Assembly: GCA_903908065.1 (NCBI GenBank)
Contig: CAIVQO010000090.1
Coordinates: 62,001-126,000, forward strand
Direction: 5' to 3'
Origin: an uncultured beta proteobacterium
Lineage (GTDB): Bacteria > Pseudomonadota > Gammaproteobacteria > Burkholderiales > Rhodocyclaceae
DNA length: 64,000 nt
Both the position numbers and the translations under genes were made by a program. A model generated the notes under the pieces. That model had not been told where the DNA came from, did not search any database, and saw only the letters and a program-made list of their open reading frames with translations. Numbering within the stretch: the stretch's first letter is position 1; every line of letters starts with the position of its first letter. Positions 1,925 through 61,694 of the stretch are shown in pieces.

Positions 1925-1945
1925 CGGCGTGGTACGGGCGCCGAC
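1925..1945 (-). repeat. Divergent copy of the GTCGGCGC dispersed repeat, between gltI and gltJ
   Basis: Read on the minus strand this gives GTCGGCGCCCGTACCACGCC, preceded by a run of A. It matches both ends of the window's 21-nt repeat but not its centre. It sits between the gltI stop (1957) and the gltJ start (1915), in the orientation of these genes. This is the weakest of the ten copies listed. Confidence 0.4.
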
Positions 1946-1956
1946 TTTTTCCTGCG

Positions 1957-2850
1957 TCAGAAACTTTCGGCCGGCGCGTCGCTCGGCGACGCAATGAGGA
2001 ACTTCAGCAGCTCGCTCATCGGGAAGTTGAGGTTCACCTGTTTCGGCGGAATCGGCGACATGAACCAGCGGGCATAGAGCTTGTCGATCTCGCCGCTTTT
2101 CATCAGGCCCTTGACCGTGTCGTCGACCACCTTCTTGAACTCGGGGTCGCCCCGCCGCAGCATGATGGCGATCGGCTCGATGCTCAGCACCTCGCCGACG
2201 ATGGCATAGTTGTTGGGCGCCTTCGAGGTGGCGATCAGCCCGGCGAGCAGGTTGTCGTCCATGACGAAGGCCACGGCGCGGTCGGTTTCCAGCATCAGGA
2301 AGGAATCGGCGTGGTCCTTGCCGTAGATCTCCTTGAAGTCGACGCCCTTGCCCTTCTCGTGGGCACGCATCAGCTGCACGCTGGTGGTGCCGGTGGTGGT
2401 GGCCACCGGTTTGCCGCCGAGCTGGCCGAGCGACTGGATGCCGGAGGCCTTCTTCACCGCCATGCGCACGTTGGTGATGAAGGTGGTCGGGGCGAAGGCC
2501 ACCTGCTTCTGCCTGGCTTCGTTGTTGGTGGTCGAGCCGCATTCGAGGTCCACCGTGCCGTTGCTGACCAGCGGGATGCGGTTCTGCGAGGTTACCGTCT
2601 GGTGCTGGACCTTGAGCCCGGGCAGCTTCAGCTTCGCCTTGACGGCATCGACGATGCGGTTGCAGATGTCGATGTGGTAACCGATCGGCTGCTGCTTCTC
2701 GTCGAGGTAGGACAGCGGATAGGAGGACTCGCGGATGCCGAGGGTGATGCTGCCGCCGTCCTTTATCTTCTTCAGCGTGCCTGCCTCCTGGGCGAAGGCC
2801 GGTGCAATCAGCAGGGCGAGGATCAGCGGGGTGCTCAGGCGGCGAAGCAT
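1957..2850 (-). CDS. gltI: Periplasmic glutamate/aspartate-type amino-acid binding protein
   Basis: This is the solute-binding protein of the gltIJKL importer, 297 aa from the chosen ATG at 2850. That start is preceded by AAGGAG and begins a clean Sec signal peptide (MLRRLSTPLILALLIAPAFA, cleavage after AFA). An upstream ATG at 2901 would overlap the exporter gene and add a non-signal extension, so it was rejected. The SBP_bac_3 fold is recognisable in SITLGIRESSYPLSYLDE, near the mature N-terminus. Glutamate/aspartate specificity is inferred from similarity to GltI. Confidence 0.9.
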   Translation of the reverse strand: MLRRLSTPLILALLIAPAFAQEAGTLKKIKDGGSITLGIRESSYPLSYLDEKQQPIGYHIDICNRIVDAVKAKLKLPGLKVQHQTVTSQNRIPLVSNGTVDLECGSTTNNEARQKQVAFAPTTFITNVRMAVKKASGIQSLGQLGGKPVATTTGTTSVQLMRAHEKGKGVDFKEIYGKDHADSFLMLETDRAVAFVMDDNLLAGLIATSKAPNNYAIVGEVLSIEPIAIMLRRGDPEFKKVVDDTVKGLMKSGEIDKLYARWFMSPIPPKQVNLNFPMSELLKFLIASPSDAPAESF

Positions 2851-2861
2851 GGCGGTCTCCT

Positions 2862-4694
2862 TCAGGGGGCTTCGGTCAGGTTCTGTTGCTGCAAGGCCCA
2901 CATCGCCGCGTACATGCCGCCCTGGTCGAGCAATGCGCGATGCGTACCGCGCTCGACGATGCGCCCGGCGTCGAGCACCAGGATCTCGTCGGCGTTCATC
3001 ACTGTAGACAGGCGGTGGGCGATGATCAAGGTGGTGCGGCCCACCGCCACCTGTTCCAGCTCGGCCTGGATCGCCTTTTCGGTCTTCGAGTCGAGCGCCG
3101 AGGTCGCCTCGTCGAAGATCAGGATCGGCGGGTTCTTCAGTAATGCCCGGGCGATGGCGACGCGCTGCTTTTCGCCGCCGGAAAGCTTCAGGCCGCGCTC
3201 GCCGACACGGGTATCGTAGCCTTCGGGCAGTGCCTCGATGAAATCGTGGATGTGCGCCGCCTGCGCCGCGGCGATGACTTCCTCGCGCGGTGCGCTGGGC
3301 CGGCCGTACTGGATGTTGTAGTAGATCGTGTCATTGAACAGCACCGTGTCCTGCGGCACGATGCCGATCGCGGCGCGCAGGCTGGCCTGCTTCAGCGCGC
3401 GCAGGTCGGAGCCATTGACCTTGACCGAGCCCGTGGTGGCGTCATAGAAGCGGAACAGCAGGCGCGCCAGCGTGGACTTTCCCGAACCGCTGTGGCCGAC
3501 CACCGCCACCGTGCCGCCAGCGCCGACTTTGAAGCTGACGTTGTGCAGGATCTGGCGGTTGCTTTCGTAGGCAAAGCCGACGTCGGCGAACTCGATCTCG
3601 CAGGGGCCGTGTTCGTTCGCGGCGAACAGCGGCCGCGCATCGGGAGAGTCTTCGACCTCGCGATTCTTGCTCAGCAGGCCGAACATGCGCTCGATGTCGG
3701 TCAGCGACTGGCGGATCTCGCGGTAAAGCACGCCGAGGTGGTTGAGCGGCATGTAAAGCTGGATCAGGAAGGCGTTCACCAGCACGATGTCGCCCACCGT
3801 CATGCTGCCGTTGGCCACGCCCACCGCCGCGCGCCACATCATCAGCGTCACGCCCAGCGCGATGATCAGCGATTGGCCCATGTTGAGCCAGGAAAGCGAC
3901 ACCTGGCTGCGGATCTGCGCCGCCTCCCACTTTTGCATCTGCTCGTCGTAGCGGTCGTGTTCCCAGCGCTCGTTGTTGAAATACTTAACCGTCTCGAAGT
4001 TGATCAGGCTGTCCACCGCGCGCACATTGGCCGCCGAGTCGAGCTCGTTGACCTCGCGGCGGATCACGGTGCGCCAGTTGGTGACGAGGATGGTGAACAC
4101 CACGTAGATGACCAGGGTTGCCGCCGTGATCAGGGTGAAATCCCAGGCATACCGCGCGGCCAGGATGCCGATCACCAGGGCGATCTCGACCAGGGTCGGC
4201 AGGATCGAGTACAGCGTATAGCTGATCAGCGAACCGATTGAACGCGTGCCGCGCTCGATGTCGCGGGTCAGGCCGCCGGTCTGGCGGTCAAGGTGGAAGC
4301 GCAGCGAGAGCGAGTGCAGGTGTTCGAAGACCTGCAGGGTGATGGTGCGCACCGCACGCTGGGTGACGCGGGCGAAGAAGATCTCGCGCAGCTCGGTGAA
4401 CAGCACGGTCGAGAAGCGCAGCGCGCCGTAGGTTGCCAGGAGGCCCAGCGGTACCAGCAGCACCGCCTGCTCCAGCTTGCTGCCGGGCAGGGTGAAGCTG
4501 TCGATGATGTCCTTGAACACCATCGGCACCGCGACATTGGTCAGCTTGGCCAGCAGCAGGCAGGACAGGGCGAACACCACGCGCCACTTCCAGGCCCACA
4601 GGTAGGGCAACAGGGTCTTGATCGTCTGCCAGTCGTGGCGTTCTTCCGGGATCGGCCCCGGCAGGGCCATGGTGGGTGGAGTGCGGCGCATCAT
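2862..4694 (-). CDS. ABC exporter, Atm1/HMT1-like, fused membrane and ATPase domains
   Basis: This half-size ABC exporter has 610 aa. About six membrane segments lie in residues 35-330 and an ATPase domain in about 360-600. Walker A is GHSGSGKST, the signature LSGGEKQR and Walker B ILIFDEATSALDS. The sequence between them resembles mitochondrial Atm1 and bacterial HMT1-type exporters, which move glutathione-linked sulphur or metal conjugates; the substrate is not shown here. Its stop lies 12 nt before the gltI start, but its function appears separate from gltIJKL. The ATPase N-terminus carries a copy of the dispersed repeat, read as FKVGAGGTV. Confidence 0.85.
   Translation of the reverse strand: MMRRTPPTMALPGPIPEERHDWQTIKTLLPYLWAWKWRVVFALSCLLLAKLTNVAVPMVFKDIIDSFTLPGSKLEQAVLLVPLGLLATYGALRFSTVLFTELREIFFARVTQRAVRTITLQVFEHLHSLSLRFHLDRQTGGLTRDIERGTRSIGSLISYTLYSILPTLVEIALVIGILAARYAWDFTLITAATLVIYVVFTILVTNWRTVIRREVNELDSAANVRAVDSLINFETVKYFNNERWEHDRYDEQMQKWEAAQIRSQVSLSWLNMGQSLIIALGVTLMMWRAAVGVANGSMTVGDIVLVNAFLIQLYMPLNHLGVLYREIRQSLTDIERMFGLLSKNREVEDSPDARPLFAANEHGPCEIEFADVGFAYESNRQILHNVSFKVGAGGTVAVVGHSGSGKSTLARLLFRFYDATTGSVKVNGSDLRALKQASLRAAIGIVPQDTVLFNDTIYYNIQYGRPSAPREEVIAAAQAAHIHDFIEALPEGYDTRVGERGLKLSGGEKQRVAIARALLKNPPILIFDEATSALDSKTEKAIQAELEQVAVGRTTLIIAHRLSTVMNADEILVLDAGRIVERGTHRALLDQGGMYAAMWALQQQNLTEAP
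3507..3527 (-). repeat. Dispersed GTCGGCGC repeat inside the ABC exporter gene
   Basis: On the minus (coding) strand this reads GTCGGCGCTGGCGGCACGGT, preceded by AAA. It differs from the consensus at two of 21 positions. It is translated as VGAGGTV just before Walker A, a position where ABC proteins tolerate variation. Confidence 0.6.
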
Positions 4695-4729
4695 GGGCGG
4701 ATTCTAGTCGCCGCCCGGCGAACCCGCCG

Positions 4730-5740: not shown

Positions 5741-5773
5741 TAGGGTGATTCTCGTGATTCGCCGTCCGGGCGC

Positions 5774-7333: not shown

Positions 7334-7426
7334 GACGGAATTCCGGTCAGGAGCGGAGGGTTCGCCCGCCGGCGTGCGGCCGGCGCGTCTGGCGGCGCCG
7401 GCGCAACGGGGCGGGGAGGCCGAATT

Positions 7427-9853
7427 CTAGGAGCCCAGGAGCTTGTGGCGCAAGGCGTGCAGCGTCGCCCGCGCTTTTTCGAAGTCGAATTCGTTGATTT
7501 CGCGGGCCAGCTGTTCGTAGCCGGTCCCGAGCACGGTGCGCAGGCGAGACCCTTCGCGCTTGAGAATGTCGGCGGCCAGCATGTCGCCGCATGACAGGGC
7601 AGCCTCGAGCGAATTCAACACGCCCTTGAGTTGGCGCGGATCGACGGCCTCCGGATCGGGCCGGGGTTCGCAGCTTGCCGGCGAAAGCGCGGCCGCGAGC
7701 GTGGTGAATTCGCCCTGGATTGCATTCAGCGGCGTGCTCACGCGCAGGTCCGCATCCTTTGCAGCGTGCAGATCCGCCTCGACCTCGCGCGCAAGCTCGG
7801 CGACGCGGTTCAAGCCCAGGGTGGCGGCGGCGCCTTTCAGCGCATGGGCCAGGGCAATGGCCTCGGCCGCTTCCTTGCGTTCCAGGGCATTGGCGATGGC
7901 GATCGTGTCATTGGCATGGCCGAGGACAAACATCCGCAGCAGGTCGAGATACCTGTCGACCCGGCCGCGCAATGCCGCCAAGCCCTGCGCGATGTCGACG
8001 CCGTTGAGCGCCTTCAGTCGGGCCAGTTCGAGCTCGCTGGCCGCATCCATTGTCCGCGCCGAGCCCGCAGCGGCGGTCGATGCAGCCGCAGGTGCCGCAA
8101 CAGGGGGCGCCAGGGCCTCGGCGGGAGGCTTCGGCAGCCATTTCAACAGGGTCGCGTAGAGGGATTCCGGGTCCACCGGCTTGGAGATGAAATCGTTCAG
8201 TCCGGCGTCGATGCAGGCGCGACGATCCTCGTCGAAGGCATTGGCCGTCATTGCCAGGATCGGCAGCGTCGCCCACTGCGGCAGTGCCCGGATCGCGCGG
8301 GTGGCTTCCAGGCCATCCATGCGCGGCATTTGCATGTCCATCAGGATCAGGTCGTAGGGACTGGCCGACGCCTTCTCCAGCGCCTCGCGGCCGTCGGCCG
8401 CCAGGGTGACGTCGAGCCCTACGCCATGCAGGACTTCCAGCGCCACCTCGGCATTGATCGGATTGTCCTCGGCCAGCAGGATGCGGGCGCCACGGTGCTT
8501 GCGGCGCAGTTGGTCCTCGGCGCTGTCCGACGATTGTTCGGGAGCAAGCGATATGCCGTGACCACGCTGCAGCGGCACCGTGAACCAGAACCGGCTGCCC
8601 TTTCCCGGGCTTCCATCGGCGCCGACGCTGCCTCCCATCAACTCCACCAGGCGGCGGGTGATCACCAGGCCGAGGCCGGTGCCGCCGTAGCGGCGCGAGG
8701 TCGAGGCGTCCACCTGTTCGAAGGCATGGAACAGGCGGTTCAGCTCGTCGGGTGCGATGCCTATGCCACTGTCTTCGACTTCGAAGCGCACCAGCAGCGT
8801 CTCCCCCTGGTCCTGCTCGACATGGCAGTGGATCGACACCTTACCGTGCTCGGTGAATTTCACCGCATTGCCGGCGTAGTTCAGCAGCGCCTGGCGCAGC
8901 CGGGTCAGGTCGCCGCGCAGCCACATCGGCACGTTGCCGCTATCCACCTCGATGTCGATGCCCTTGCCCTGTGCCGTGCCGGCGATCAGAGAATGGACAT
9001 GGTCGAGCAGCGCGCCAAGGGAGAAATTCTCCTGTTCGAGGGCAATCTTGCCGGCCTCGATCTTCGACAGGTCGAGGATGTCGTTGATGATCGAAAGCAG
9101 GTGTCGCCCGGCTTCGCCGATCTTGTTCAGGCGCTCCTGCTGTTGCGGCGTCGCGCCGGCATGCAGCAGGTGGGCGAGGCCGAGCACCGCGTTCATCGGC
9201 GTGCGGATCTCGTGGCTCATGTTGGCGAGGAACTGCGATTTGGCCACGTTGGCGGCCTCGGCCGCATCCTTCGCTGCGGCCAGCTGGCGGGTACGTTCCG
9301 CCACCAGCTGTTCGAGGTGGTCGCGGTACTGTTCCAGCAGGGCCTGCTGTTCGGCAACGTCGTGCAGCGTCTTGTAAGCGCGCAGCCCGGCATACACCGA
9401 GACGAAAATGCGGTCCGCCGTCAGTTCCGACTTCAGGCGGTAGCCGTCGATTTCGTAGTTGGCGACCACTTCCCGTTGCGGCGCAAAGCCAGGCTGGCCG
9501 GTAACCAGCACGATGCGCACCATGCGGTTGCCGGCCTCCTGGCGCACGTAACGCACCAGGTCGAGGCCCGCCAGTTCGGTTTCCATCACCACGTCGAGCA
9601 GGATCAGGGCGACGTCGGGATGGGCCAGCAGCACCGCCTTGGCTTCGGCCACCGAACCGGCGTCGAACAACTGCAGGCGGTGGCCTTCGACGACCATGTC
9701 GCGCAGCGCCAGGCGCAACACGGCATGGATGTCCGGCTCGTCGTCGACCACCAGTACCTTCCACGATTCGGCCCTCGCTTGCGGCTCGGCCGCGTTCGCG
9801 TCTTCAGGAGCGAACAGCGACGAGAACTCGTCGTTTTCCACGGGCTGGCTCAT
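7427..9853 (-). CDS. Hybrid histidine kinase: REC-HisKA-HATPase-REC-HPt
   Basis: This cytoplasmic phosphorelay protein has 808 aa and no membrane segment. An N-terminal receiver has its phospho-Asp near residue 87 (LILLDVVM). A coiled coil leads to HisKA with His near 214 ([12 protein letters not shown]), then HATPase ([21 protein letters not shown]). A second receiver has Asp near 506 (LILMDMQMP) and a C-terminal HPt has His near 670 ([12 protein letters not shown]). No DNA-binding or enzymatic output is present. The start ATG overlaps the stop of the upstream kinase gene (ATGA), so the two are translationally coupled. The N-terminal receiver is a natural target of that upstream kinase. It ends in TAG. 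Confidence 0.92.
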
Positions 9854-14203: not shown

Positions 14204-16540
14204 ATGAGCTGGTTGCTGATCCTGATCCTTGTCCCCGTCGCCGTGCTGCTGCTGCCGCCGCTGCGCCGCACCGTCCTGACCGGCCCCATCTTCGCCATCT
14301 ACAAGAAGATGCTGCCCGCCATGTCGCAAACCGAGCGCGAGGCGCTGGAGGCCGGCACGGTCTGGTGGGAAGGCGAGCTGTTCTCCGGCAGGCCCGACTG
14401 GCGCCAGCTCCACGCCTATCCGGTGCCGACCCTGAGCGCCGAGGAGCAATCCTTTCTCGACCGGGAGTGCGAGGAACTCTGCCGCCTCTCCAACGACTGG
14501 GAAACCACCCAGCTGCACCACGACCTGCCGCCCGAGGTCTGGGCCTACATCAAGGATAAGGGCTTCCTCGGCATGATCATCCCCAAGCGCTACGGCGGGC
14601 TGGAGTTCTCCGCCTACGCCCACTCGATGGTGGTGCAGAAGCTGTCCACGCGCTGCTCCGCGGCGGCGGTGTCGGTCATGGTGCCCAACTCGCTGGGCCC
14701 GGCCGAACTGCTGCTGCACTACGGCACCGAGGCGCAGAAGAACCATTTCCTGCCGCGCCTGGCGCAGGGCCAGGAGATCCCCGCGTTCGCCCTCACCAGC
14801 CCGCAGGCCGGTTCCGACGCGGCATCCATCCCCGACCTTGGCATCGTCTGCAAGGGCCAGTGGCAGGGTAAGGAAGTCATCGGCATGCGCGTCACCTGGG
14901 ACAAGCGCTACATCACGCTGGGGCCGATCTGCACCGTGCTTGGTTTGGCCTTCCGCCTGCAGGACCCGGAACACCTGCTCGGCGACAAGTCCGACCTCGG
15001 CATCACCTGCGCACTGGTGCCGACCGACCATCCGGGCGTCAACATCGGCCGCCGCCATTTCCCGCTCAACGCCGTGTGGCAGAACGGGCCGAACTCGGGC
15101 AAAGATGTGTTCATGCCGCTGGACTGGATCATCGGCGGCCCGGCCATGGCCGGCCAGGGCTGGCGCATGCTGATGGAGTGCCTGGCGGCGGGGCGTTCGA
15201 TCTCGCTGCCTTCGTCGAACACCGGCATGGCCAAGCTGGCGGTGCGTGCCACCGGCGCCTACGCCCGGGTGCGCAGCCAGTTCAAGACTGCCATCGGCCG
15301 CTTTGAGGGCATCGAGGAGCCGCTGGCGCGCATGGGCGGCAAGCTCTACGCCATGGACGCGGCGCGGACCCTGACCGCCGGCGCCATCGACCTCGGCGAG
15401 AAGCCCTCGGTGGTCTCGGCCATCGTCAAGTACCACGTCACCGAAGGCGCGCGCCAGGTGATCAACGACGCCATGGACATCCTCGGCGGCAAGGGCATCT
15501 GCCTCGGCCCCAACAACTTCATCGGCCGCGCCTACCAGCAGGTGCCGGTGGCGATCACCGTGGAGGGGGCCAACATCCTGACGCGCAGCCTGATCGTCTT
15601 CGGCCAGGGCGCGATCCGCTGCCACCCCTACGTACTGGAGGAAATGGCGGCGGCCAGGGAGGCCGAGCACGGTCGCGGCCTGCGCCGCTTCGACGCCGCC
15701 TTCGCCAGCCACCTGTGGTTCATCTGGTCGCGCGGCTTCTGCGCCTGGACCATGGGTCTCAGCGGCTCGCACTTCGCGTCCGTCCCCGACGGCATCGCGC
15801 CCGAAACGCGACGCTACTACCAGCAGCTGTCGCGCTTCTCGGCCGCCTTCGCCTTCCTCGCCGACGTCTCGATGTTCGTCATGGGCGGCGACCTCAAACG
15901 CAAGGAAAAGCTTTCCGCACGGCTGGGCGACATCCTCTCGCTGATGTACCTGGCCTCGGCCACGCTCAAGCGCTATGAAGCGGAAGGCCGCCAGGCGGCC
16001 GATGCGCCGCTGATGCACTGGGCGATCTGGGATGCCATGTTCCGCATGCAGAACGCCTTCGAGGGCGTGATCTCCAACTACCCCAACCGTTTCATCGCCG
16101 CGCTGCTGCACTGGTACATCTTCCCGCTCGGCCGGCCCTACGAGGTGCCCTCCGACCGGCTCGGCCACGAGGTGGCGCAGCTGCTGATCGAGCCCTCGGC
16201 CACGCGCGACCGCCTCACCGCCGGCATGTACCTGCCGCGCGACGAGGCGGATGCCGTCGGCGTGGTCGAGCTGGCGCTGGAAGCGACGGTCGCCGCGGAG
16301 CCGGTCGAGGCGCGCATCCGCGCCGCCGTCAAGGCGGGAAGAGTCGGCGCTGGCGACACGGCGACACAGGCGCGACATGCCTGCGAGGCCGGCATCATCA
16401 GCGCGGAGGAACTCGCCCTGCTGCAGCGGCGCGCCGCGCTGCGCGACCGCGCCATCGCAGTCGACGACTTTCCGCAGGATTTCGCCCACGAAGCCGGCAC
16501 GCAGGCCCCGCCGGCCACCGGCCTCAAGAAAGTGGCCTGA
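14204..16540 (+). CDS. fadE: Acyl-CoA dehydrogenase, FadE-like
   Basis: This 778-aa enzyme catalyses the first, FAD-dependent step of fatty-acid beta-oxidation. Its length and layout match the long FadE class (E. coli FadE is about 814 aa), not the ~380-aa type. An N-terminal hydrophobic segment (about residues 2-20) suggests membrane association. The dehydrogenase core spans about 90-500 (FALTSPQAGSDAAS, ITVEGANILTRSLIVFGQGA), and the extra FadE C-terminal domain follows. The dispersed repeat lies near the C-terminus, read as RVGAGDTAT. The thiolase gene starts 1 nt after the stop. Confidence 0.93.
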   Translation: MSWLLILILVPVAVLLLPPLRRTVLTGPIFAIYKKMLPAMSQTEREALEAGTVWWEGELFSGRPDWRQLHAYPVPTLSAEEQSFLDRECEELCRLSNDWETTQLHHDLPPEVWAYIKDKGFLGMIIPKRYGGLEFSAYAHSMVVQKLSTRCSAAAVSVMVPNSLGPAELLLHYGTEAQKNHFLPRLAQGQEIPAFALTSPQAGSDAASIPDLGIVCKGQWQGKEVIGMRVTWDKRYITLGPICTVLGLAFRLQDPEHLLGDKSDLGITCALVPTDHPGVNIGRRHFPLNAVWQNGPNSGKDVFMPLDWIIGGPAMAGQGWRMLMECLAAGRSISLPSSNTGMAKLAVRATGAYARVRSQFKTAIGRFEGIEEPLARMGGKLYAMDAARTLTAGAIDLGEKPSVVSAIVKYHVTEGARQVINDAMDILGGKGICLGPNNFIGRAYQQVPVAITVEGANILTRSLIVFGQGAIRCHPYVLEEMAAAREAEHGRGLRRFDAAFASHLWFIWSRGFCAWTMGLSGSHFASVPDGIAPETRRYYQQLSRFSAAFAFLADVSMFVMGGDLKRKEKLSARLGDILSLMYLASATLKRYEAEGRQAADAPLMHWAIWDAMFRMQNAFEGVISNYPNRFIAALLHWYIFPLGRPYEVPSDRLGHEVAQLLIEPSATRDRLTAGMYLPRDEADAVGVVELALEATVAAEPVEARIRAAVKAGRVGAGDTATQARHACEAGIISAEELALLQRRAALRDRAIAVDDFPQDFAHEAGTQAPPATGLKKVA
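16343..16363 (+). repeat. Dispersed GTCGGCGC repeat inside fadE
   Basis: This copy reads GTCGGCGCTGGCGACACGGC plus G. It is identical over all 21 positions to the non-coding copy at 22358 and differs by one base from the copy at 46826. It is translated in frame as VGAGDTA in the weakly conserved C-terminal domain. Confidence 0.75.
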
Positions 16541-17831: not shown

Positions 17832-19771
17832 ACCTGAGCAACTGGAAGCTGCAACGCGAACCCGACGGCCTGGCCTGGGCCATCCTCGATACCGCCAATT
17901 CCTCGACCAATACGCTGGGCGCCGCGGTGATGACCGAGCTGGGCCTGATCCTCGACGAATGCGAGAAAAACCCGCCGAGAGGCCTGATTTTCAAATCTGC
18001 CAAGGAAGCCGGCTTCATCGCCGGCGCCAACATCGAGGAGTTCATTTCGGCCGACACGCCGGAAAAGGCGCGCACCTTGATCCAGCGCGGCTGGGATACC
18101 TACAATCGCCTGGCCGCGGTGCGTTACCCGACGCTGGCCCTGGTACGTGGCCACTGCATGGGCGGTGGCACCGAGCTGGCGCTGGCCTGCCGCTACCGCA
18201 TCGCGGTCGATGAGACGGGCACCAAGTTCGCGCTGCCCGAAGTGATGCTGGGCATCGTCCCCGGCTGGGGCGGCATGCTGCGCCTGCCGCAGCTGGTGGG
18301 ACCGGCGGCGGCTTTCGACATGATGCTCACCGGCAAGAACATCGATGCCAAACGGGCGAAGAAGATGGGCCTCGCCGACGAGTGCGTGCCCCCGCGCGTG
18401 ATGGAGAATGCCGCCCGCATGCTGGTGCTGTCCGGCAAGCCGCCGCGCCAGCTGCCCTTCCTGCAGAAGCTGATGAACGGCCCGCTGAAGGCTATGGTCG
18501 CCAATGGCGCGAAAAAGCAGGTGGCCAAACGCGCGCGCCAGGAACACTATCCCGCGCCCTGGGCCATCATCGACCAGTGGCAAAACTACGGCGGCAATAC
18601 GCTGGCGGTGCCGGCCGACAGGCCGACCTCGCTCGATGCGCTGGTGAAGCATCCGACCACGCGCAACCTGATCCGCGTCTTCTTCCTGCAGGACCGGCTC
18701 AAGGGCTTCGGCAAGGAGGCCAAGGCCGCAAATGGTTACACGGTGCCGCAGCGCGTGCATGTGGTCGGCGCCGGCGTCATGGGCGGCGACATCGCTGCCT
18801 GGTGCGTGCTGCGCGGCATGACAGTGACGCTGCAGGACCAGTCGGTGGAGCGCATCGCGCCGGCCGTCGGCCGCGCCGCAAAGTTTTTCGAGAAGAAGCT
18901 GCGCGACAAGAAGTTGGCCCGCTTCGCCCTCGACCGGCTGGTCGCCGACCCGAAGGGGGACGGCGTGCGCCAGGCCGACGTCATCATCGAGGCCATCTTC
19001 GAGAACCTCGAGACCAAGCAGAAGCTTTTCGCCGACATCGAGGCGCGGGCGAAGCCGGACGCGCTGATCGCCACCAACACCTCCTCGCTCAAACTGGCGG
19101 ACATCGCGGCAACGTTCAAGGATCCCTCGCGCCTGGTCGGCATCCACTTCTTCAACCCGGTGAGCATGATGCCGCTGGTCGAAGTGGTGGCCGGCGACAA
19201 GACTGCGCCGGAGGTCGCGCAGCGGGCTGCGGCCTTCGTGCGCCGGATCGACAAGTTGCCGCTGCCGGTGAAGGACGCGCCCGGCTTCCTGGTGAATGCC
19301 GTGCTCGGCCCCTACATGAACGAAGCCATGAAGTGCGTGGATGAAGGCGTTGCGCCCGAGGCGATCGACGCGGCACTGGTTGCCTTCGGCATGCCCATGG
19401 GACCGATCGAACTCGCCGACACCGTCGGCCTCGACGTCGCCGTCCATGCCGGCAAGCAGCTGGTCGGCGACGCCGCGCCGCCGAAGAAGCTGGTCGAACT
19501 CTTCGAGGCCGGCAAGCTGGGCAAGAAATCCGGCCAGGGCTTCTACACCTGGGTCGAGGGCAAGGCGCAGAAGACAAAAGTCGGCGCTGGCGGCACGGCG
19601 AACCCGGCGCTCGCGGAGCGCATGCTCAAGCCCTTGCTCGATGCCACGCAACGCCTGGTGCGTGAAGGCATCGTCGCCGACGCGGAACTGGCCGACGCCG
19701 GCGTAATCTTCGGTACCGGCTTCGCGCCCTACACCGGCGGGCCGATGAACTACCTGGCGAGCAAGGGCTGA
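17828..19771 (+). CDS. Bifunctional enoyl-CoA hydratase / 3-hydroxyacyl-CoA dehydrogenase, FadJ-like
   Basis: This 647-aa protein carries both middle steps of beta-oxidation. The crotonase domain (about 1-190) has the oxyanion region GHCMGGGTELALA. The NAD-binding dehydrogenase domain begins near 315 with VVGAGVMGGDIAAWC and continues through GIHFFNPVSMMPLVEVV. It is shorter than E. coli FadB/FadJ (about 715-730 aa). A dispersed-repeat copy lies in a linker, read as KVGAGGTAN. Pairing with the upstream thiolase as a multienzyme complex is likely by family analogy. Confidence 0.92.
   Translation: MNLSNWKLQREPDGLAWAILDTANSSTNTLGAAVMTELGLILDECEKNPPRGLIFKSAKEAGFIAGANIEEFISADTPEKARTLIQRGWDTYNRLAAVRYPTLALVRGHCMGGGTELALACRYRIAVDETGTKFALPEVMLGIVPGWGGMLRLPQLVGPAAAFDMMLTGKNIDAKRAKKMGLADECVPPRVMENAARMLVLSGKPPRQLPFLQKLMNGPLKAMVANGAKKQVAKRARQEHYPAPWAIIDQWQNYGGNTLAVPADRPTSLDALVKHPTTRNLIRVFFLQDRLKGFGKEAKAANGYTVPQRVHVVGAGVMGGDIAAWCVLRGMTVTLQDQSVERIAPAVGRAAKFFEKKLRDKKLARFALDRLVADPKGDGVRQADVIIEAIFENLETKQKLFADIEARAKPDALIATNTSSLKLADIAATFKDPSRLVGIHFFNPVSMMPLVEVVAGDKTAPEVAQRAAAFVRRIDKLPLPVKDAPGFLVNAVLGPYMNEAMKCVDEGVAPEAIDAALVAFGMPMGPIELADTVGLDVAVHAGKQLVGDAAPPKKLVELFEAGKLGKKSGQGFYTWVEGKAQKTKVGAGGTANPALAERMLKPLLDATQRLVREGIVADAELADAGVIFGTGFAPYTGGPMNYLASKG
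19580..19600 (+). repeat. Dispersed GTCGGCGC repeat inside the FadJ-like gene
   Basis: This copy reads GTCGGCGCTGGCGGCACGGC plus G, one base from the consensus, and is preceded by AAA. It is translated as VGAGGTA in the linker after the conserved GKKSGQGFY motif. Confidence 0.65.
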
Positions 19772-22257: not shown

Positions 22258-22357
22258 GGAGTGGAGTATCGGTGAAGCGGATGCGGTGCGCCACCCGATT
22301 CTTGCGAACTTGATCTATGTTTCCGGCCGAGACGGAGACACTATTCGTCGCGCAGAC

Positions 22358-22378
22358 GTCGGCGCTGGCGACACGGCG
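22358..22378 (+). repeat. Non-coding copy of the dispersed repeat upstream of yciA
   Basis: GTCGGCGCTGGCGACACGGC plus G lies in the intergenic region and matches the fadE copy over all 21 bases. Because it is untranslated, protein conservation cannot explain the match. It sits in sense orientation to yciA, and its GCGACA could serve as a -35 element. Confidence 0.7.
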
Positions 22379-22397
22379 GCCGGCGGCGCCCTATACT
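22368..22397 (+). promoter_or_regulatory. Candidate promoter of yciA
   Basis: TATACT (22392-22397) is a good -10 element. GCGACA (22368-22373), 18 nt upstream, matches four of six -35 bases and lies inside the dispersed repeat. The yciA start is 28 nt downstream of the -10, with AAGGGAA as ribosome binding site. Confidence 0.45.
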
Positions 22398-26054: not shown

Positions 26055-26858
26055 TCAGGCGACCAGGGTCAGGTCACGCAGGAAGTCGCTGCAGTCCTGT
26101 TCCACCTTGGCCGCCAGCAGGTGGTCGGCGCGGGTCTTGCCGAGGTTGATCGCCATCACCGGCTTGCCGCAACGGTGCGCGTACTCGGCGAAGCGGAAGC
26201 CGGAATACACCATCAGCGAGGAGCCGATCACCAGCAGGCCGGCGGCTTCATCGATCGCCGTGTGCACAGCGCCGACTCTTGCCTTGGGCACGTTGTCGCC
26301 GAAGAACACCACATCGGGCTTGAGTCTACCCTCGCAGGCCGGGCAGCAGGGCGGGGTGAAGCCCTGCTCGAAGCCGGCCGCCGTGTCGGCGTCGCCGTCC
26401 GGCGCGGCGCGTGCTGTGGCGTCGGCCGCCTCGGGGTTGGCGGCGCGCATCCAGTCCTGCACCTCGGCGCGGCGGTGGCGCAGCCCGCAATCGAGGCAGA
26501 CCACCTCGGCGATGGCACCATGCAGTTCCAGCACGGCACGGCTGCCGGCCTTCTGGTGCAGGCCGTCGACGTTCTGCGTCACGGTCAGCGCGATGTGTCC
26601 GCGCGCTTCCAATGCCGCCAGCGCATGGTGGCCGGCGCCGGGCATGGCCAGCCCGATGGTCGGCCAGCCGAGGAAGCTGCGCGCCCAGTAGCGGCGGCGC
26701 ACCTCGGCCGAAGCGAGGAAGTCGCGGTGATCCACCGGCTGCGGCCGTTTCCAGCGGCCTTCGCGGTCGCGGTAGTCGGGAATTCCGCTGGCGGTGGACA
26801 GCCCAGCGCCGGTGAGCGCCACCACCGGGCCGGCGGCGAGCAGCTGCGCTACCCGCAC
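26055..26858 (-). CDS. Sir2-family NAD-dependent protein deacylase
   Basis: This sirtuin of 267 aa removes acyl groups from lysines using NAD+. Motifs are GAGLSTASGIPDYR (NAD binding), TQNVDGLH, and the catalytic His in LELHG. Zinc Cys pairs are CLDC and the later CCPAC, separated by a longer than usual Ala/Asp-rich insert. A dispersed-repeat copy is read as RVGAVHTAI. The start is a GTG at 26858 with no clear ribosome site, 17 nt after the FKBP stop, so coupling is likely. Its deacylase role would suit an acyl-CoA-rich metabolism; that link is inference. Confidence 0.88.
   Translation of the reverse strand: MRVAQLLAAGPVVALTGAGLSTASGIPDYRDREGRWKRPQPVDHRDFLASAEVRRRYWARSFLGWPTIGLAMPGAGHHALAALEARGHIALTVTQNVDGLHQKAGSRAVLELHGAIAEVVCLDCGLRHRRAEVQDWMRAANPEAADATARAAPDGDADTAAGFEQGFTPPCCPACEGRLKPDVVFFGDNVPKARVGAVHTAIDEAAGLLVIGSSLMVYSGFRFAEYAHRCGKPVMAINLGKTRADHLLAAKVEQDCSDFLRDLTLVA
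26256..26276 (-). repeat. Dispersed GTCGGCGC repeat inside the sirtuin gene
   Basis: On the coding strand this reads GTCGGCGCTGTGCACACGGC plus G, preceded by AAGA. The centre differs from consensus (TGC for GCG). It is translated as VGAVHTA, followed by ATC (Ile), as in the copy at 34288. Confidence 0.55.
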
Positions 26859-46262: not shown

Positions 46263-46933
46263 TGCGGCTTGAGCACCGATTCGTGGTCGAAGTCGCCCGT
46301 CCGCCCTTCGCTGATCTCGACCAGCTTGGGGTAGAGGCGGAACATGTCGGCCTTGAGCACCTCGTAGGGCAGGTCATCGAACTCGCCGCGCTGCTTCACG
46401 TATTCCATGTGGCGCTGGTTGGACGAGTTGTAGGGGTGCATCAGCGAGTCGTGCTCACCGTCGAAATCCAGCGGCAGCACGCCGAAGCGCTGGCACATGC
46501 TGAAGTTGAAGGCCGGCGTGGCCTTGACCCACTTGCCGTCGAGCAGCAGGCTGACGTAGCCGTGCCAGGCGAAGACATCGGTGCCCATCAGGCGTGTCAG
46601 CTTTTCGGTGGAAAGGTGGTTCTTGACGTCGGCGAAACCGGGCCTCGCCGGGATACCGAGGGCGCGCAGGCAGGCGCAGTAAAGCAGCGCCTTGGGCACG
46701 CAGTAGCTAGCGCCCTTGATCACCGTGGTGCTGGCGCGCATCGCCTCGCGCTGCATGCTGCTGGCGTAGGGGTCGTAGCGGATGTCGTCGCGCACGGCGT
46801 AGTACAAGTTGAGCGCCTTGTCTTTCGCCGTGTCGCCGGCGCCGACTCTTGCGGCGATGAATTCGCGCACCGCCGGGTGTTCGTGGTCGATGAACTCGGT
46901 GGCGGCCAGCCAGGCGGGGTTGATGTCGGTCAT
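46259..46933 (-). CDS. Transglutaminase-like cysteine protein
   Basis: This 224-aa soluble protein has a transglutaminase/protease-like core with Cys in GASYCVPKALLYCACLRA and His in WHGYVSLLLDGKWV. The usual third residue, Asp of a DPT motif, is replaced by ATPAFN, as in some uncharacterised relatives. Activity on acyl or peptide substrates is therefore uncertain. It sits between an acyl-CoA dehydrogenase and a crotonase gene, with 2 nt and overlapping junctions. The ATG at 46933 is the start, and a repeat copy near the N-terminus reads RVGAGDTAK. Confidence 0.82.
   Translation of the reverse strand: MTDINPAWLAATEFIDHEHPAVREFIAARVGAGDTAKDKALNLYYAVRDDIRYDPYASSMQREAMRASTTVIKGASYCVPKALLYCACLRALGIPARPGFADVKNHLSTEKLTRLMGTDVFAWHGYVSLLLDGKWVKATPAFNFSMCQRFGVLPLDFDGEHDSLMHPYNSSNQRHMEYVKQRGEFDDLPYEVLKADMFRLYPKLVEISEGRTGDFDHESVLKPQ
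46826..46846 (-). repeat. Dispersed GTCGGCGC repeat inside the transglutaminase-like gene
   Basis: On the coding strand this reads GTCGGCGCCGGCGACACGGC plus G, preceded by AAGA as in the fadE copy. It differs from that copy by a single C/T at a third codon position and is translated as VGAGDTA. Confidence 0.7.
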
Positions 46934-52658: not shown

Positions 52659-52705
52659 GAGCAGGCGCCCCCAAGGGGTTTGGGTCGCAAAGCAGAAGCG
52701 CACCC

Positions 52706-52809
52706 TGCCGAGGATGGCGGGTATCCGATTCCGGTAAGTAAAGGGGGAGAGCCTGGTTTCATCAGGCTCGGAGGACATGGACGGAATCGGATACCCGTCG
52801 TCCTCGGCA
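52706..52809 (+). repeat. Structured palindromic element, copy 2 (forward orientation)
   Basis: Arms of 28 bp at 52706-52733 and 52782-52809 pair with only two exceptions, and both would be G-U pairs in RNA. The 48-nt interior begins GTAAGTAAAGG, ends GGACATGGA and contains the hairpin AGCCTG-GTTTCAT-CAGGCT. The inner and outer stems differ from copy 1 while pairing is kept, the pattern expected of a conserved structure. It ends 69 nt before the fadB start. Apart from these two copies the 356-nt gap shows nothing else I can name. Confidence 0.8.
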
Positions 52810-52878
52810 CGCACCTACTGCCAACAATCAATGCCTTTGAATCATCGCAGACCCAGCCTGCATCCTGGAGCCACTGAC

Positions 52879-55023
52879 ATGCTGAACTATTCCGTCGATG
52901 CCGAAGGCATCGCCATCGTCGAATTCGACTACCCCGGCAAGTCGCAGAACATCCTCAACGCCGGCTCTATGGACGCCTACGCAGAGGCCATGCAGAAGGC
53001 GCTGGCCGATCCGGCGGTGAAGGGCATCGTGGTGGCTTCGGCGAAGAAGGATTTCATCGCCGGCGGTGACCTGGGCGAGATGGCGGGTTGCACCGATGCG
53101 GCGGCTTTCCACGCCTCGATCAGCAACTGGCACAAGCTGATGCGTGGCATCGAGCTGGGCGGCAAGCCGGTAGCGGCGGCGCTCAACGGCACCACGTTGG
53201 GTGGTGGCATGGAGGTTGCGCTGTCCTGCCATTACCGCGTTGCCGCCGACAATCCGAAGGCGCGCTTCGGCTTCCCCGAGGTTACGCTGGGACTGCTGCC
53301 CGGTGCGGGCGGCACGCAGCGCGTGCCGCGCCTGGTCGGCATGCAGGCGGCGGCGCCCTTGCTGATGGAAGGCAAGCGCATCAAGGCCGCCGAGGCGCAG
53401 AAGATCGGCCTGATCCACGCCGTGGTGAAAGTCGGCGATGAGCGTACGGCGGCGCGGCAGTGGGTGATGGATGCTATCGCCTCGGGCGCCAAGCCCATGC
53501 AGCCCTGGGACAGCAAGGGGTTCAAGATCCCCGGCGGCGGGCCGGCCACGCCGGGCGGCATGCAGATGTTGATGGCGGCCAATGCCATGCTGCGCGAAAA
53601 GACCTACGACAACTATCCGGCGCCCAAGCACATCCTGTCCTGCGTCTATGAAGGACTGTCCACCAATCTCGATACCGGACTCGCCATCGAGTCGCGCTAC
53701 TTCACCAACCTGGTGATGTCGCCGGTGTCGAAGAACATGATTCGCAGCCTGTTCTTCGGCATGCAGGAAGCCAACCGGCTCGCCTCGCGCCCGGCCGGCG
53801 TTGCGCCGCAGAAATACGCGAAGATCGGCATGCTCGGCGCCGGCATGATGGGCGCGGGCATCGCCATGAGTACGGCCCAGGCCGGCATCGCGGTGGTCCT
53901 GCTCGACACCACGCTTGAAGCGGCCGAGAAGGGCAAGGCCTATGCTGCCAAAGCCTGGGGCAAGCAGGTGGCCAGGGGGCGCATGACGCAGGAAGCGGTC
54001 GATGCCCTGCTGGCGCGCATCACGCCGACCGCGGACTACGCCGACCTCGCCGGCTGCGAACTGGTGGTCGAGGCCGTGTTCGAGAAGCGCGAGATCAAGG
54101 CCGACGTGACGAAAAAGACCGAAGCCGTGATTGCACCCGACGCGATCTTCGCCTCGAATACCTCGACCCTGCCGATCACCGGGCTGGCCGAGGCCTCGGT
54201 GCGCCCGGCCAACTTCATCGGCCTGCACTTCTTCTCTCCCGCCGAGAAGATGCCGCTGGTCGAGATCATCGTCGGCAAGGCGACCAGCGAAGAAACCCTG
54301 GCGCGTTCGATGGACTATGTCAAAGCCATCGGCAAGACCCCCATCGTGGTGAACGATTCGCGCGGCTTCTACACCAGCCGCGTCTTCGGTACCTATGTCT
54401 CGGAAGGCATGGCCCTGCTCGAAGAAGGCGTGCCGCCGGCGCTGATCGACAAGGCCGGACTGATCGCCGGCATGCCGGTCGGGCCGCTGGCGCTGGCCGA
54501 CGAGGTGTCGATCGAGCTGGTGTACAAGATCGGCCAGCAGACGCGGGCCGATCTCGGCAGCGCCTACGTCGAGCGCGCGGCGGATCGCGTCGCGGCGAAG
54601 ATGGTCGCTGAGCTCGGGCGGCTCGGGCGCAAGTCGGGCGCGGGCTTTTACGATTACCCGGCTGACGGCGCGAAACGTTTGTGGCCTGGGCTGGCTGAAC
54701 ACTTCAAAGTCGGCGCCGGCGCTACGGCGATTCCATCGCTCGACGAGATCATCGAGCGCCTGATCCTCGTCCAGTCGGTCGAGACCGCGCGCTGCCTCGA
54801 AGAGAAGGTGCTGCGCGCCCCGATCGATGCCGATGTCGGGGCGATCCTCGGCTGGGGCTACCCGCCCTTCCGCGGTGGGCCGATCGGCTGGCTGCATACG
54901 CTTGGCCTTGCGGCCGCCGTGGATAAACTCGACCGCCTTGCCGAACGGCATGGCAATCGCTTTGCTGCACCGCAATTGCTGCGCGACATGGCGGTGAAAG
55001 GGGAACGCTTCTATCCCGCCTGA
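52879..55023 (+). CDS. fadB: Fatty-acid oxidation complex alpha subunit (enoyl-CoA hydratase / 3-hydroxyacyl-CoA dehydrogenase)
   Basis: This 714-aa bifunctional enzyme has full FadB/FadJ length. The crotonase half (about 1-190) shows GTTLGGGMEVALSCHYR and the dehydrogenase half starts near 315 with MLGAGMMGAGIAMSTA. The conserved IGLHFFSPAEKMPLVEII follows, and the C-terminal dehydrogenase domain ends in GWGYPPFRGGPIGWL. The ATG at 52879 has GGAG upstream. A repeat copy reads KVGAGATAI. It is the second such enzyme in the window; the two are distinct in length and sequence, so different chain lengths or substrates are likely. Confidence 0.94.
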   Translation: MLNYSVDAEGIAIVEFDYPGKSQNILNAGSMDAYAEAMQKALADPAVKGIVVASAKKDFIAGGDLGEMAGCTDAAAFHASISNWHKLMRGIELGGKPVAAALNGTTLGGGMEVALSCHYRVAADNPKARFGFPEVTLGLLPGAGGTQRVPRLVGMQAAAPLLMEGKRIKAAEAQKIGLIHAVVKVGDERTAARQWVMDAIASGAKPMQPWDSKGFKIPGGGPATPGGMQMLMAANAMLREKTYDNYPAPKHILSCVYEGLSTNLDTGLAIESRYFTNLVMSPVSKNMIRSLFFGMQEANRLASRPAGVAPQKYAKIGMLGAGMMGAGIAMSTAQAGIAVVLLDTTLEAAEKGKAYAAKAWGKQVARGRMTQEAVDALLARITPTADYADLAGCELVVEAVFEKREIKADVTKKTEAVIAPDAIFASNTSTLPITGLAEASVRPANFIGLHFFSPAEKMPLVEIIVGKATSEETLARSMDYVKAIGKTPIVVNDSRGFYTSRVFGTYVSEGMALLEEGVPPALIDKAGLIAGMPVGPLALADEVSIELVYKIGQQTRADLGSAYVERAADRVAAKMVAELGRLGRKSGAGFYDYPADGAKRLWPGLAEHFKVGAGATAIPSLDEIIERLILVQSVETARCLEEKVLRAPIDADVGAILGWGYPPFRGGPIGWLHTLGLAAAVDKLDRLAERHGNRFAAPQLLRDMAVKGERFYPA
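54709..54729 (+). repeat. Dispersed GTCGGCGC repeat inside fadB
   Basis: GTCGGCGCCGGCGCTACGGC plus G, preceded by AAA. It is translated as KVGAGATAI in the linker before the final dehydrogenase subdomain, roughly where the FadJ-like gene carries its own copy. Confidence 0.6.
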
Positions 55024-55087
55024 TGCATAATCCCCAACAGACCCGCAAAGGGCAAAACAGAACCATTCCCCGGAGGAGACACATCGG

Positions 55088-58605: not shown

Positions 58606-58608
58606 ACC

Positions 58609-60477: not shown

Positions 60478-60515
60478 TCCGGACGATTCGGCAGTACCCA
60501 TAACGAGGAGAAACC

Positions 60516-61694
60516 ATGAAGAAAAGCATGAAACTGGCCGTCGCGGCGCTGGCCGCCGCAGGAGTCGGCGCTGGCAGCACGGCGATTGCCGCCGAGCAGA
60601 TGGGCGTCAGCAAGAACGAGATCGTGATCGGCACCATCCAGGATCTCTCCGGCCCGCTGGCCGGTTTCGGCAAGGCGCTGCGCTTCGGCATGCAGATGCG
60701 CGTCGACGAGGTCAACGAATCGGGCGGCATCAACGGCCGCAAGCTCAAGTTCATCGCCGAGGATTCCGGCTATGACCCGAAGAAGGGCTTGCTGGCCGCG
60801 CAGAAAATGGTGCAGCAGGACAAGATTTTCGCCATGGTCGGCACGATCGGCACGGCAGTGAACCTGGCCACCTTCCCGACCCTGTTCGACAAGGGCGTGA
60901 TGAACCTCTTCCCCCTGACGGCGGCGCGCGAAATGTACGAGCCGCTGCACAAGCTCAAGTTCTCCTTCGCCGCGCCCTACTACACCCAGATCCGCATGGG
61001 CGTGAAGTGGCTGGCCAAGGAGCGCGGCGCGAAGAAGTTCTGCGTCATCTACCAGGACGACGACTTCGGTACCGAGGTGCTGAAGGGCGCCGAAGACGGC
61101 CTCAAGGACATGAACATGAGCTTCGCCGAGAAGACCTCCTTCAAGCGCGGCGCCACCGACTTCTCGGCCCAGGTCTCGAAGATGAAGGCCTCGGATTGCG
61201 ATACCGTGGTGCTCGGTACCATCATCCGCGAGACCATCGGCACCATAGGCACGGCGCGCAAGATGGGCTGGAACCCGCAGTTCATCGGCTCCTCGGCCGC
61301 GTACACCGACCTGATCCACAAGCTGGGCGGCAAGGCCATGGACGGGCTCTACGCCATGCACCAGGTGGCCGTGCCCTACGCCGACGATTCCTCGAAGAAC
61401 GTGCGCGACTGGTTCGCCGCCTACAAGGGCAAGTTCAACGAAGAGCCCGGCCTTTTCTCGGCCTATGGCTACGTGGCGATGGACATGTTCGTGCAGACGG
61501 CGAAGAAGACCGGTGCCAACCTGACCACCGACAACTTCATCAAGACGCTGGAATCCACCACCTTCTCGCGCGACATGTTCGGCAGCCCCGAGTACAAGTT
61601 CGGGCCCAAGCAGCACCTGGGCAACGACAAGTCCAAGGTTGGCCAGATCCAGAACGGACGCTGGGTGGCGATTACCGACTACATGGCGCAGTAA
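60516..61694 (+). CDS. livK: Periplasmic substrate-binding protein of the Liv-type importer
   Basis: This 392-aa periplasmic binding protein (peripla_BP_6 type) has a signal peptide (MKKSMKLAVAALAAAG..., cleavage near IAA-EQ). The mature start SKNEIVIGTIQDLSGPLAGF is typical of LivK relatives. The dispersed repeat lies in the signal peptide, read as VGAGSTA. It is last in the operon, ahead of a strong terminator. The ligand is unknown; relatives bind amino acids, amides or aromatic acids. Confidence 0.92.
   Translation: MKKSMKLAVAALAAAGVGAGSTAIAAEQMGVSKNEIVIGTIQDLSGPLAGFGKALRFGMQMRVDEVNESGGINGRKLKFIAEDSGYDPKKGLLAAQKMVQQDKIFAMVGTIGTAVNLATFPTLFDKGVMNLFPLTAAREMYEPLHKLKFSFAAPYYTQIRMGVKWLAKERGAKKFCVIYQDDDFGTEVLKGAEDGLKDMNMSFAEKTSFKRGATDFSAQVSKMKASDCDTVVLGTIIRETIGTIGTARKMGWNPQFIGSSAAYTDLIHKLGGKAMDGLYAMHQVAVPYADDSSKNVRDWFAAYKGKFNEEPGLFSAYGYVAMDMFVQTAKKTGANLTTDNFIKTLESTTFSRDMFGSPEYKFGPKQHLGNDKSKVGQIQNGRWVAITDYMAQ
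60564..60584 (+). repeat. Dispersed GTCGGCGC repeat inside the livK signal peptide
   Basis: GTCGGCGCTGGCAGCACGGC plus G, two bases from consensus. It encodes VGAGSTA at the end of the hydrophobic core of the signal peptide, a region free to vary in sequence. Confidence 0.6.

What the first reader, a model, noticed from the sequence alone, without database searches (positions are those of the whole stretch)
1925..60584. A ~21-nt dispersed repeat inserted in frame in unrelated genes
Copies of GTCGGCGCYGGCGNCACGGC+G occur at 3507(-), 16343, 19580, 22358, 26256(-), 34288, 46826(-), 54709 and 60564, with a weaker one at 1925(-). The copies at 16343 (inside fadE) and 22358 (non-coding) are identical over 21 bases, and 46826 differs by one third-position base. 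All ten lie in the sense direction of their gene. All eight coding copies are read in the same frame, giving V-G-A-(G/V)-x-T and then A (V in the 3507 copy). Hosts are unrelated: ABC exporter, FadE, FadJ, sirtuin, FapA, transglutaminase, FadB, LivK signal peptide. Possible explanations are an in-frame selfish element like Rickettsia palindromic elements, a DNA-uptake or chromosome-organisation sequence, or an RNA-level site. The exact non-coding copy argues against protein selection alone.
Basis: seen in the sequence. Interest (0 to 1): 0.85.

Follow-up and report, generated by a model that had tools for sequence, protein, structure and literature searches.

The report
Uptake-like DNA tag in Sulfuritalea genomes
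A 28-letter DNA tag is scattered roughly 640 times through this sulfur bacterium's genome; most copies arose in place rather than by insertion, related versions occur in sister genera, and it looks like the tags by which a few bacteria recognise and take up DNA of their own kind, a trait so far reported in only two families.

Summary
The repeat is real and genome-wide. In 862 kb of its Sulfuritalea genome (window plus 40 stretches, 22%) I find 143 sites of a 28-column, 32-bit motif, RARAGTCGGCGCTGGCGRYACGGCGAtt, about 640 per genome. The window's pattern (all sense, one frame) is local: in the sample 58 coding copies are sense and 42 antisense, all frames occur, and 40 of 143 are intergenic, 3.5 times expectation. 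It is mostly not an insertion: of 28 coding copies with a spanning outgroup homologue, 15 align ungapped within 4 residues, and 1 to 3 (by width of the stretch counted) have a host longer by 5 or more residues. Copies in this genome are more evenly spaced than chance. Six of 68 sampled genera of the family carry it densely, with clear dialects in at least three. These are properties reported for DNA uptake sequences, which a 2025 paper says are known only in Neisseriaceae and Pasteurellaceae (PMC12616744, passages). Best reading: a third uptake-sequence system with an unusually long conserved core. Uptake itself is untested. Transposable (REP/RPE-like) and RNA-level readings are not supported.

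The parts
1922..1949 (-). motif copy, intergenic, just after a solute-binding-protein gene (1957-2850, -)
   Evidence: 30.5 bits; intergenic; neighbour SBP_bac_3
3504..3531 (-). motif copy in ABC exporter gene, sense, frame 0
   Evidence: 31.7 bits; host Pfam ABC_membrane + ABC_tran; 27 of 27 outgroup homologues ungapped; same-length outgroup DNA
16339..16366 (+). motif copy in fadE (acyl-CoA dehydrogenase), sense, frame 0
   Evidence: 39.9 bits; kept in congeners with diverged flanks; of 49 outgroup homologues 7 ungapped, none with the host longer by 6 or more
19576..19603 (+). motif copy in fadJ-like gene, sense, frame 0
   Evidence: 41.1 bits; host 4 residues longer than best outgroup, 3 of 51 homologues ungapped; hairpin-like inserts inside it in some congeners
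22354..22381 (+). motif copy, intergenic
   Evidence: 29.8 bits; intergenic
   Evidence: 26.8 bits; host Pfam HisKA, HATPase_c, Response_reg
26253..26280 (-). motif copy in sirtuin gene, sense, frame 0
   Evidence: 28.5 bits; SIR2
46823..46850 (-). motif copy in transglutaminase-like gene, sense, frame 0
   Evidence: 37.7 bits; Transglut_core
   Evidence: 23.3 bits; 38 of 50 outgroup homologues ungapped
54705..54732 (+). motif copy in fadB-like gene, sense, frame 0; the copy that looks most like an insertion
   Evidence: 36.1 bits; host 11-13 residues longer than best homologue, and longer by 6 or more than 22 of 50
60560..60587 (+). motif copy in the N-terminal (signal peptide) region of a LivK-like periplasmic binding protein gene
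   Evidence: 37.2 bits; Peripla_BP_6
   Evidence: 12.0 bits, within the range of the Markov and reversed controls; host FapA_N

Best explanation
The repeat is a DNA-level recognition sequence that behaves like the DNA uptake sequences (DUS/USS) of Neisseriaceae and Pasteurellaceae. Shown here: 143 sites of one 28-column motif in 862 kb, both orientations, all frames, intergenic excess, even spacing in this genome, origin mostly by substitution at permissive sites, and dialects in sister genera. Inferred: a surface receptor of the type IV pilus/competence machinery binds the motif in double-stranded DNA, so fragments carrying it are taken up and recombined more often; over time this biased uptake fixes better-matching variants wherever the encoded residues are tolerated.
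For: 143 sites of 18 bits or more in 862,450 bases; none in one Markov control, one in the reversed sequence. Both orientations, all frames; 40 of 143 intergenic against 8% non-coding, P 2e-12. In-place origin: 28 of 100 coding copies testable; 15 ungapped within 4 residues (11 within 12); host longer by 5 or more in 1 (within 4 residues) or 3 (within 8 or 12); of the 17 homologues with 45% identity or more, 0 or 1. At the ABC-exporter site outgroups have a same-length, partly matching coding sequence. Spacing CV 0.74 against 0.96 simulated, 0 of 5000 as even; six other genomes all lie on the even side of simulation, but singly only G336 is below 0.05 (P 0.005-0.16). Motif dense in six genera, with dialects. 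Fewer copies in the fifth of genes with the most atypical codon use (0.133 against 0.18-0.22 per kb, P 0.03). Coding copies by fifths of the gene 21, 17, 11, 21, 30. ComEC and 17 pilin-type genes above cut-off are present. USS are reported to evolve by point mutation, not insertion (PMC1626085 and PMC7811141, passages).
Against: No uptake or transformation data; I know of no competence test in this genus. No receptor was identified, and ComEC and type IV pilins occur widely, so their presence is weak support. About 20 nearly invariant positions is far more than the 9-13 nt cores of DUS/USS, although the full H. influenzae USS is given as 31 bp (PMC7811141, passage). Density (1.7-2.7 per 10 kb; some stretches were picked near hits) is several-fold below Neisseria. 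Few half-formed sites exist (8 between 12 and 18 bits), which gradual build-up might be expected to leave. In G000 no pair lies closer than 230 bp, so there are no inverted terminator pairs of the DUS kind. One to three of 28 testable copies could be insertions. Copies are enriched near RAYT genes. The six genera do not order by FadE similarity, so a single origin is not shown. Sequence constraint on single sites rests on few clean comparisons: 7 G000 sites, core 91.8% against flanks 85.9%.
Confidence: 0.65

Rival explanations
1. It is the genomic binding site of an intracellular protein that organises, segregates or repairs the chromosome (in the manner of matS, KOPS, Chi or a nucleoid protein), kept at even spacing by selection on the sites.
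For: Even spacing, intergenic excess and clade restriction fit this too.
Against: Strands are mixed (79 plus, 64 minus; neighbours on the same strand in 70 of 134 pairs), unlike the polar KOPS and Chi sites as I recall them. The site is long and non-palindromic, and it shifts between genera. Orientation relative to replication was not tested.
Confidence: 0.2
2. It is a REP-type or Rickettsia-type mobile element pasted into genes and spacers, perhaps by the RAYT (Y1) transposases of the genus.
For: Strong consensus with few intermediates; the short form can be drawn as an imperfect hairpin and there is a structured long form; 33 copies against 15 expected in 90 kb around RAYT genes (some of the 30 loci overlap or are orthologous); a copy follows the gene within 400 nt in 9 of 16 loci with a gene call; 1-3 of 28 testable copies lengthen the host.
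Against: Most testable copies replace same-length sequence. Among 485 flank pairs between different genomes, from 84 copies, none has fewer than 12 bases between the flanks. Five of 31 Sulfuritalea genomes, G000 among them, have no RAYT match. The RAYT genes read here are bordered by a different sequence, AAAGGGGTCAGAGTC...CTCTGACCCCTTT. In g10 position 20 is A in 86-87% of sites while its stem partner stays C.
Confidence: 0.09
3. It is an RNA- or protein-level signal read in mRNA or peptide (VGAGDTA).
For: Sense frame 0 is the commonest coding class (42 of 100).
Against: 42 of 100 coding copies are antisense and 40 of 143 sites are intergenic. All 21 VGAGxT[AV] peptides in the sample are coded by the motif, none by other codons. 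No Rfam match in 104 kb.
Confidence: 0.03
4. Codon or amino-acid composition alone.
For: Preferred GC-rich codons resemble parts of the motif.
Against: 99 coding hits against at most 15 in 20 synonymous shuffles; reversed-pattern control 1 against 501.
Confidence: 0.01

Closest known systems
Uptake signal sequence (USS) of Pasteurellaceae, e.g. Haemophilus influenzae
   Same: Many near-identical copies in both orientations, in coding and non-coding DNA, arising by point mutation and not insertion, relatively evenly spread, scarcer in acquired DNA, with dialects and a bias to gene ends (PMC1626085 and PMC7811141: passages; PMC2346458: first of three parts of the text). Full width is similar: 31 bp is given for the USS (PMC7811141, passage).
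   Different: Unrelated sequence; about 20 nearly invariant positions against a 9-10 nt core with looser flanks; lower density; Betaproteobacteria; uptake not shown.
DNA uptake sequence (DUS) of Neisseriaceae
   Same: Clade-wide motif with dialects around a constant core (PMC3630211: passages and section 11).
   Different: DUS are up to about 13 nt (PMC12616744, passage), about 1900 to nearly 6000 per genome, and often sit as inverted pairs (PMC3630211, section 11); no such pairs were seen in the G000 sample. That DUS are bound by the minor pilin ComP is recalled; no receptor is known here.
REP/RAYT elements and Rickettsia palindromic elements
   Same: High copy, near-identical, some in frame within genes; the short form can be drawn as an imperfect hairpin; copies enriched near RAYT genes.
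   Different: Those are inserted sequences (recalled); here most testable hosts are not lengthened and RAYT borders differ.

Membership tests
DNA uptake sequences (DUS/USS) | Strong genome-wide over-representation of one motif | tested here: met
   143 sites in 862 kb against 0 and 1 in two controls; among the top 11-mers found without a seed in G000, G050 and G278
DNA uptake sequences (DUS/USS) | Arises by substitution in pre-existing sequence, not insertion | tested here: met
   28 of 100 coding copies testable; 15 ungapped within 4 residues, 1 to 3 with host longer by 5 or more; ABC-exporter site. Met for most copies, not proved for all
DNA uptake sequences (DUS/USS) | Both orientations, coding and intergenic, with intergenic excess | tested here: met
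   58 sense, 42 antisense, 40 intergenic, 3 partial
DNA uptake sequences (DUS/USS) | Relatively even spacing | tested here: met
   G000: CV 0.74 against 0.96, 0 of 5000 simulations as even. Six smaller samples lean the same way, one below 0.05
DNA uptake sequences (DUS/USS) | Dialects that follow taxa, with a constant core | tested here: met
   Six genera share AAAGTCGG(C/T)GCTGG...ACGGC(G/A); differences clear in g10, g142 and g192, slight in g14 and g169; one genome each sampled for dialect in most genera
DNA uptake sequences (DUS/USS) | Depleted in foreign DNA | tested here: inconclusive
   Codon-atypical fifth of genes 0.133 per kb against 0.18-0.22, P 0.03
DNA uptake sequences (DUS/USS) | Short core of about 9-13 nt | tested here: not met
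   28 columns, 32 bits, about 20 nearly invariant; a reason to say uptake-like and not a DUS
DNA uptake sequences (DUS/USS) | Motif raises DNA uptake or transformation | not testable with these tools
   needs an uptake assay
DNA uptake sequences (DUS/USS) | Dedicated pilin-type receptor | not tested
   17 N_methyl matches above cut-off in G000, none assigned
REP/RAYT elements | Copies are insertions | tested here: not met
   1 to 3 of 28 could be
REP/RAYT elements | Cognate RAYT bordered by the repeat | tested here: not met
   different border repeat; no RAYT match in G000; yet copies are enriched near RAYT genes, 33 against 15
Rickettsia palindromic elements | In-frame insertion lengthening the host protein | tested here: not met
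   1 to 3 of 28 testable copies

The most novel reading that the evidence does not exclude
A third, separately evolved system of self-DNA recognition in bacterial transformation exists in several genera of one Rhodocyclales family, with a strictly conserved recognition core about twice as long as those known for DUS and USS, and with dialects that may act as barriers to exchange between genera.
Probability: 0.57. Interest if true: 0.88.

Novelty: new variant of a known kind. Interest (0 to 1): 0.8.

Why it matters
A paper of 2025 states that only Neisseriaceae and Pasteurellaceae are known to select their own DNA by uptake motifs (PMC12616744, passages). A third case in environmental sulfur bacteria, with at least six motif-bearing genera, would allow an independent test of how such specificity arises and how a receptor and its motif change together. 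The long strict core would also raise the question of how much sequence a pilin-type receptor can read. Eight searches of the held library (listings only) showed no paper on such a motif in Rhodocyclales.

Tried and rejected
Insertion (RPE or REP): rejected for most copies by outgroup protein alignment, FadE, the ABC-exporter site and the absence of empty sites. Caveats: 72 of 100 coding copies had no spanning outgroup homologue in the DNA I held; 11 of the 28 best homologues are under 45% identical; with a wider stretch 3 of 28 hosts are longer by 5 or more residues and 2 are shorter by 5 or more; the fadB copy at 54705 looks like an insertion against 22 of 50 homologues.

Figures corrected on re-checking: one search counted 829 flank pairs (610 with exactly 28 bases between flanks) and one search gave core 96% against flanks 91% over 133 sites, but both included the same DNA fetched twice (for example L001-L030 are G000 itself, and L031 is the same sequence as G026:C55), and one search also dropped partners below 15 bits. 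Without same-genome pairs and pairs above 95% identity there are 485 pairs from 84 copies, 291 with exactly 28 bases, none below 12, and 7 usable G000 sites for conservation. The spacing CVs came from separate 20-kb pieces and were tested again against matched simulation. I lowered the main confidence from 0.68 to 0.65 for this.

RAYT as mobiliser: 26 of 31 Sulfuritalea genomes match PF01797; G000, G001, G007, G012 and G025 do not. Of 30 loci I listed L287-L311 (L282-L286 left out); 9 of these 25 gave no clear ORF. In 9 of the other 16 a motif copy lies within 400 nt downstream, which I cannot fully explain.

RNA or ssDNA structure: the short forms fold weakly (z -0.6 to -1.4) and a dialect breaks a stem pair. 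Rfam: no match in 104 kb.

Single origin of the six genera: not settled. FadE identity to G000 is 84-90% in g1 (two genomes), 78% in g169, 69-75% in g192, 69% in g10 and g14, and 68-74% in genera without dense copies; G002, G336, G278, G444, G456, G217 and G349 gave no full-length match there.

De novo 11-mers in four family members without the motif (120 kb each, ten best listed) showed nothing clearly similar. The Accumulibacter, Azonexus, Thauera and Achromobacter sets are orthologous FadE regions and were not used. Viral contigs: 47 stretches with an exact copy, 81 sites in 430 kb; whether they are truly viral was not checked. A plasmid search with 8 kb of the window gave one partial match (16% of the query, 74% identity).

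Full report
What was checked. By FadE similarity its closest named relatives are Sulfuritalea MAGs. The pattern GTCGGCGCYGGCGNCACGGC with up to 2 mismatches occurs 501 times in G000 (238 and 263 on the two strands) against 1 for the reversed pattern. Exact copies number 89 in G000 and 11-126 in each of 12 congeners, and 0 in 8 genomes of other families of the order.

The motif. From 67 copies in 862,450 bases (the window plus 40 stretches, 22% of the genome) the conserved part runs over about 28 columns, RARAGTCGGCGCTGGCGRYACGGCGAtt, with 32 bits. A matrix scan gives 143 sites of 18 bits or more, with most between 26 and 40, and only 8 between 12 and 18. One Markov control gives none at 18 or more, the reversed sequence one. 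That extrapolates to about 640 per genome.

Strand and frame. With a simple gene caller of my own (92% coding), 100 sites are coding, 40 intergenic and 3 partial. Of the coding ones 58 are sense (frames 0, 1, 2: 42, 2, 14) and 42 antisense (15, 3, 24). Sense against antisense is not significant (P 0.13); frames are uneven in both orientations (P 3e-10 and 4e-4). The rare sense frame 1 encodes bulky residues, so frame choice looks like tolerance by the host protein (inference). The window's uniform picture is a local sample: 9 of 9 coding sites are of the commonest class.

DNA level. There are 99 coding hits against a mean of 9.65 (maximum 15) in 20 synonymous-codon shuffles, and all 21 VGAGxT[AV] peptides in the sample are coded by the motif. 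In fadE the motif is kept in congeners while flanking DNA differs (the output was cut after the fadE part). Clean comparisons of single sites are few: for 7 G000 sites with a same-length partner at 95% flank identity or less, the 21-base core is 91.8% identical and the flanks 85.9%. An earlier, larger figure was inflated by duplicate DNA and is withdrawn.

Mostly not an insertion. In FadE the motif occupies a variable linker; of 49 outgroup homologues 7 align ungapped and none has a host longer by 6 or more residues. At the ABC-exporter copy 27 of 27 homologues are ungapped, and outgroup DNA there is same-length and partly similar. Of 100 coding copies, 28 have a spanning outgroup homologue in the DNA I held. 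Within 4 residues of the core 15 best homologues are ungapped and 1 host is longer by 5 or more; within 12 residues 11 are ungapped, 3 hosts are longer and 2 shorter by 5 or more. Among the 17 homologues of 45% identity or more, at most 1 host is longer. The clearest exception is the fadB copy at 54705 (22 of 50 homologues shorter by 6 or more). Among 485 flank pairs between different genomes, from 84 copies, 291 have exactly 28 bases between the flanks and none fewer than 12. Alignment gaps are also the test by which Redfield and colleagues showed that USS are not insertions (PMC1626085, passages).

Spacing and context. In G000 the distances between neighbours have CV 0.74, against 0.96 in simulations; 0 of 5000 were as even. 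No gap is below 230 bp (5.0 expected) and 11 are below 1000 (20.8 expected). In six other genomes CVs are 0.57-0.77 against 0.85-0.91 in matched simulation, P 0.005 (G336), 0.054, 0.069, 0.093, 0.093 and 0.162. Intergenic sites are 3.5 times over-represented, and coding copies by fifths of the gene number 21, 17, 11, 21, 30. The fifth of genes with the most atypical codon use has the lowest density (P 0.03).

Dialects. The 14-mer AAAGTCGGCGCTGG is abundant (56-439 per genome) in 15 of 150 family genomes, belonging to 6 of 68 genera and including every sampled member of those six (one genome each for g142 and g169); the other 135 have 12 or fewer, reversed-pattern controls 2 or fewer. The exact Sulfuritalea 21-mer is found in 4 of 300 genomes of the order: G000 (83), G278 (32) and one copy each in G050 and G175. 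Other genera use variants: position 20 is A in 86% of G050 sites (g10), position 5 is often T in g142, position 14 is mostly G in g142 and g10 but C or T in Sulfuritalea, and positions 11 and 14 are often T in g192; g14 and g169 differ only slightly. Density is 1.7-2.7 per 10 kb in the seven samples with 20 or more sites; stretches of G363, G336 and G466 were chosen near listed hits, so theirs may be high.

Inserts in the motif. A long form shares both ends and has a 36-nt hairpin-forming middle, whose stem shows compensatory changes by eye in the listing. At two sites G000 has the short and G008 the long form. At the fadJ site congeners carry three further hairpin-like inserts inside the motif. 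I read these as REP-like sequences landing in a tolerated spot; they are not needed for the main finding.

Mechanism. Shown: a dispersed, DNA-level motif, evenly spaced in this genome, of mostly substitutional origin, with dialects. Inferred: biased uptake by a surface receptor and recombination spread it, as modelled for USS (PMC7811141, passages). G000 has ComEC and 17 pilin-type matches above cut-off, but these are common and do not prove it. The chief rival is a chromosome-organising site; mixed orientation and dialects count against the known polar kinds but not against an unknown one. Enrichment near RAYT genes is not explained by the uptake reading.

Novelty. [quoted passage not shown] Eight searches of the library (listings) showed nothing on Rhodocyclales. 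Because the strict core is longer than in known uptake sequences and uptake is untested, I call it uptake-like, not a member.

Noticed in passing
G008:C52:50060, C52:76338, C13:91117, C13:2064; G000:C98:18178 and C98:31732: Long form of the motif with a 36-nt hairpin middle, listed in many Sulfuritalea genomes (the search pattern also caught short forms; 26 of 31 genomes had some match). In the G000 and G008 samples all 6 such middles lie inside the motif.
   Followed up: partly
fadJ site in L162, L174, L176 and fadE site in L205: Three further hairpin-like inserts, each inside the motif, suggest the motif is a preferred landing spot for REP-like sequences.
   Followed up: no
L035 (matrix hits 7678-7892) and L211:1399-1545: Tandem arrays of the motif with 24-28 nt units; in L035 the units end in the g10-like GGCACGC.
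   Followed up: no
L287-L311: RAYT genes bordered by AAAGGGGTCAGAGTC...CTCTGACCCCTTT have a motif copy within 400 nt downstream in 9 of 16 loci with a gene call.
   Followed up: partly
G403:C1:1461275-1502253: All five 14-mer copies of this genome lie on one strand within about 41 kb; possibly an island acquired from a motif-bearing genus.
   Followed up: partly
L235-L281: 47 stretches of IMG/VR contigs contain an exact copy, 81 sites in 430 kb; true viral origin unchecked.
   Followed up: no
G001: One congener has only 11 exact copies against 34-126 in the others listed with it; perhaps another dialect, incompleteness (83%) or decay after loss of competence.
   Followed up: no
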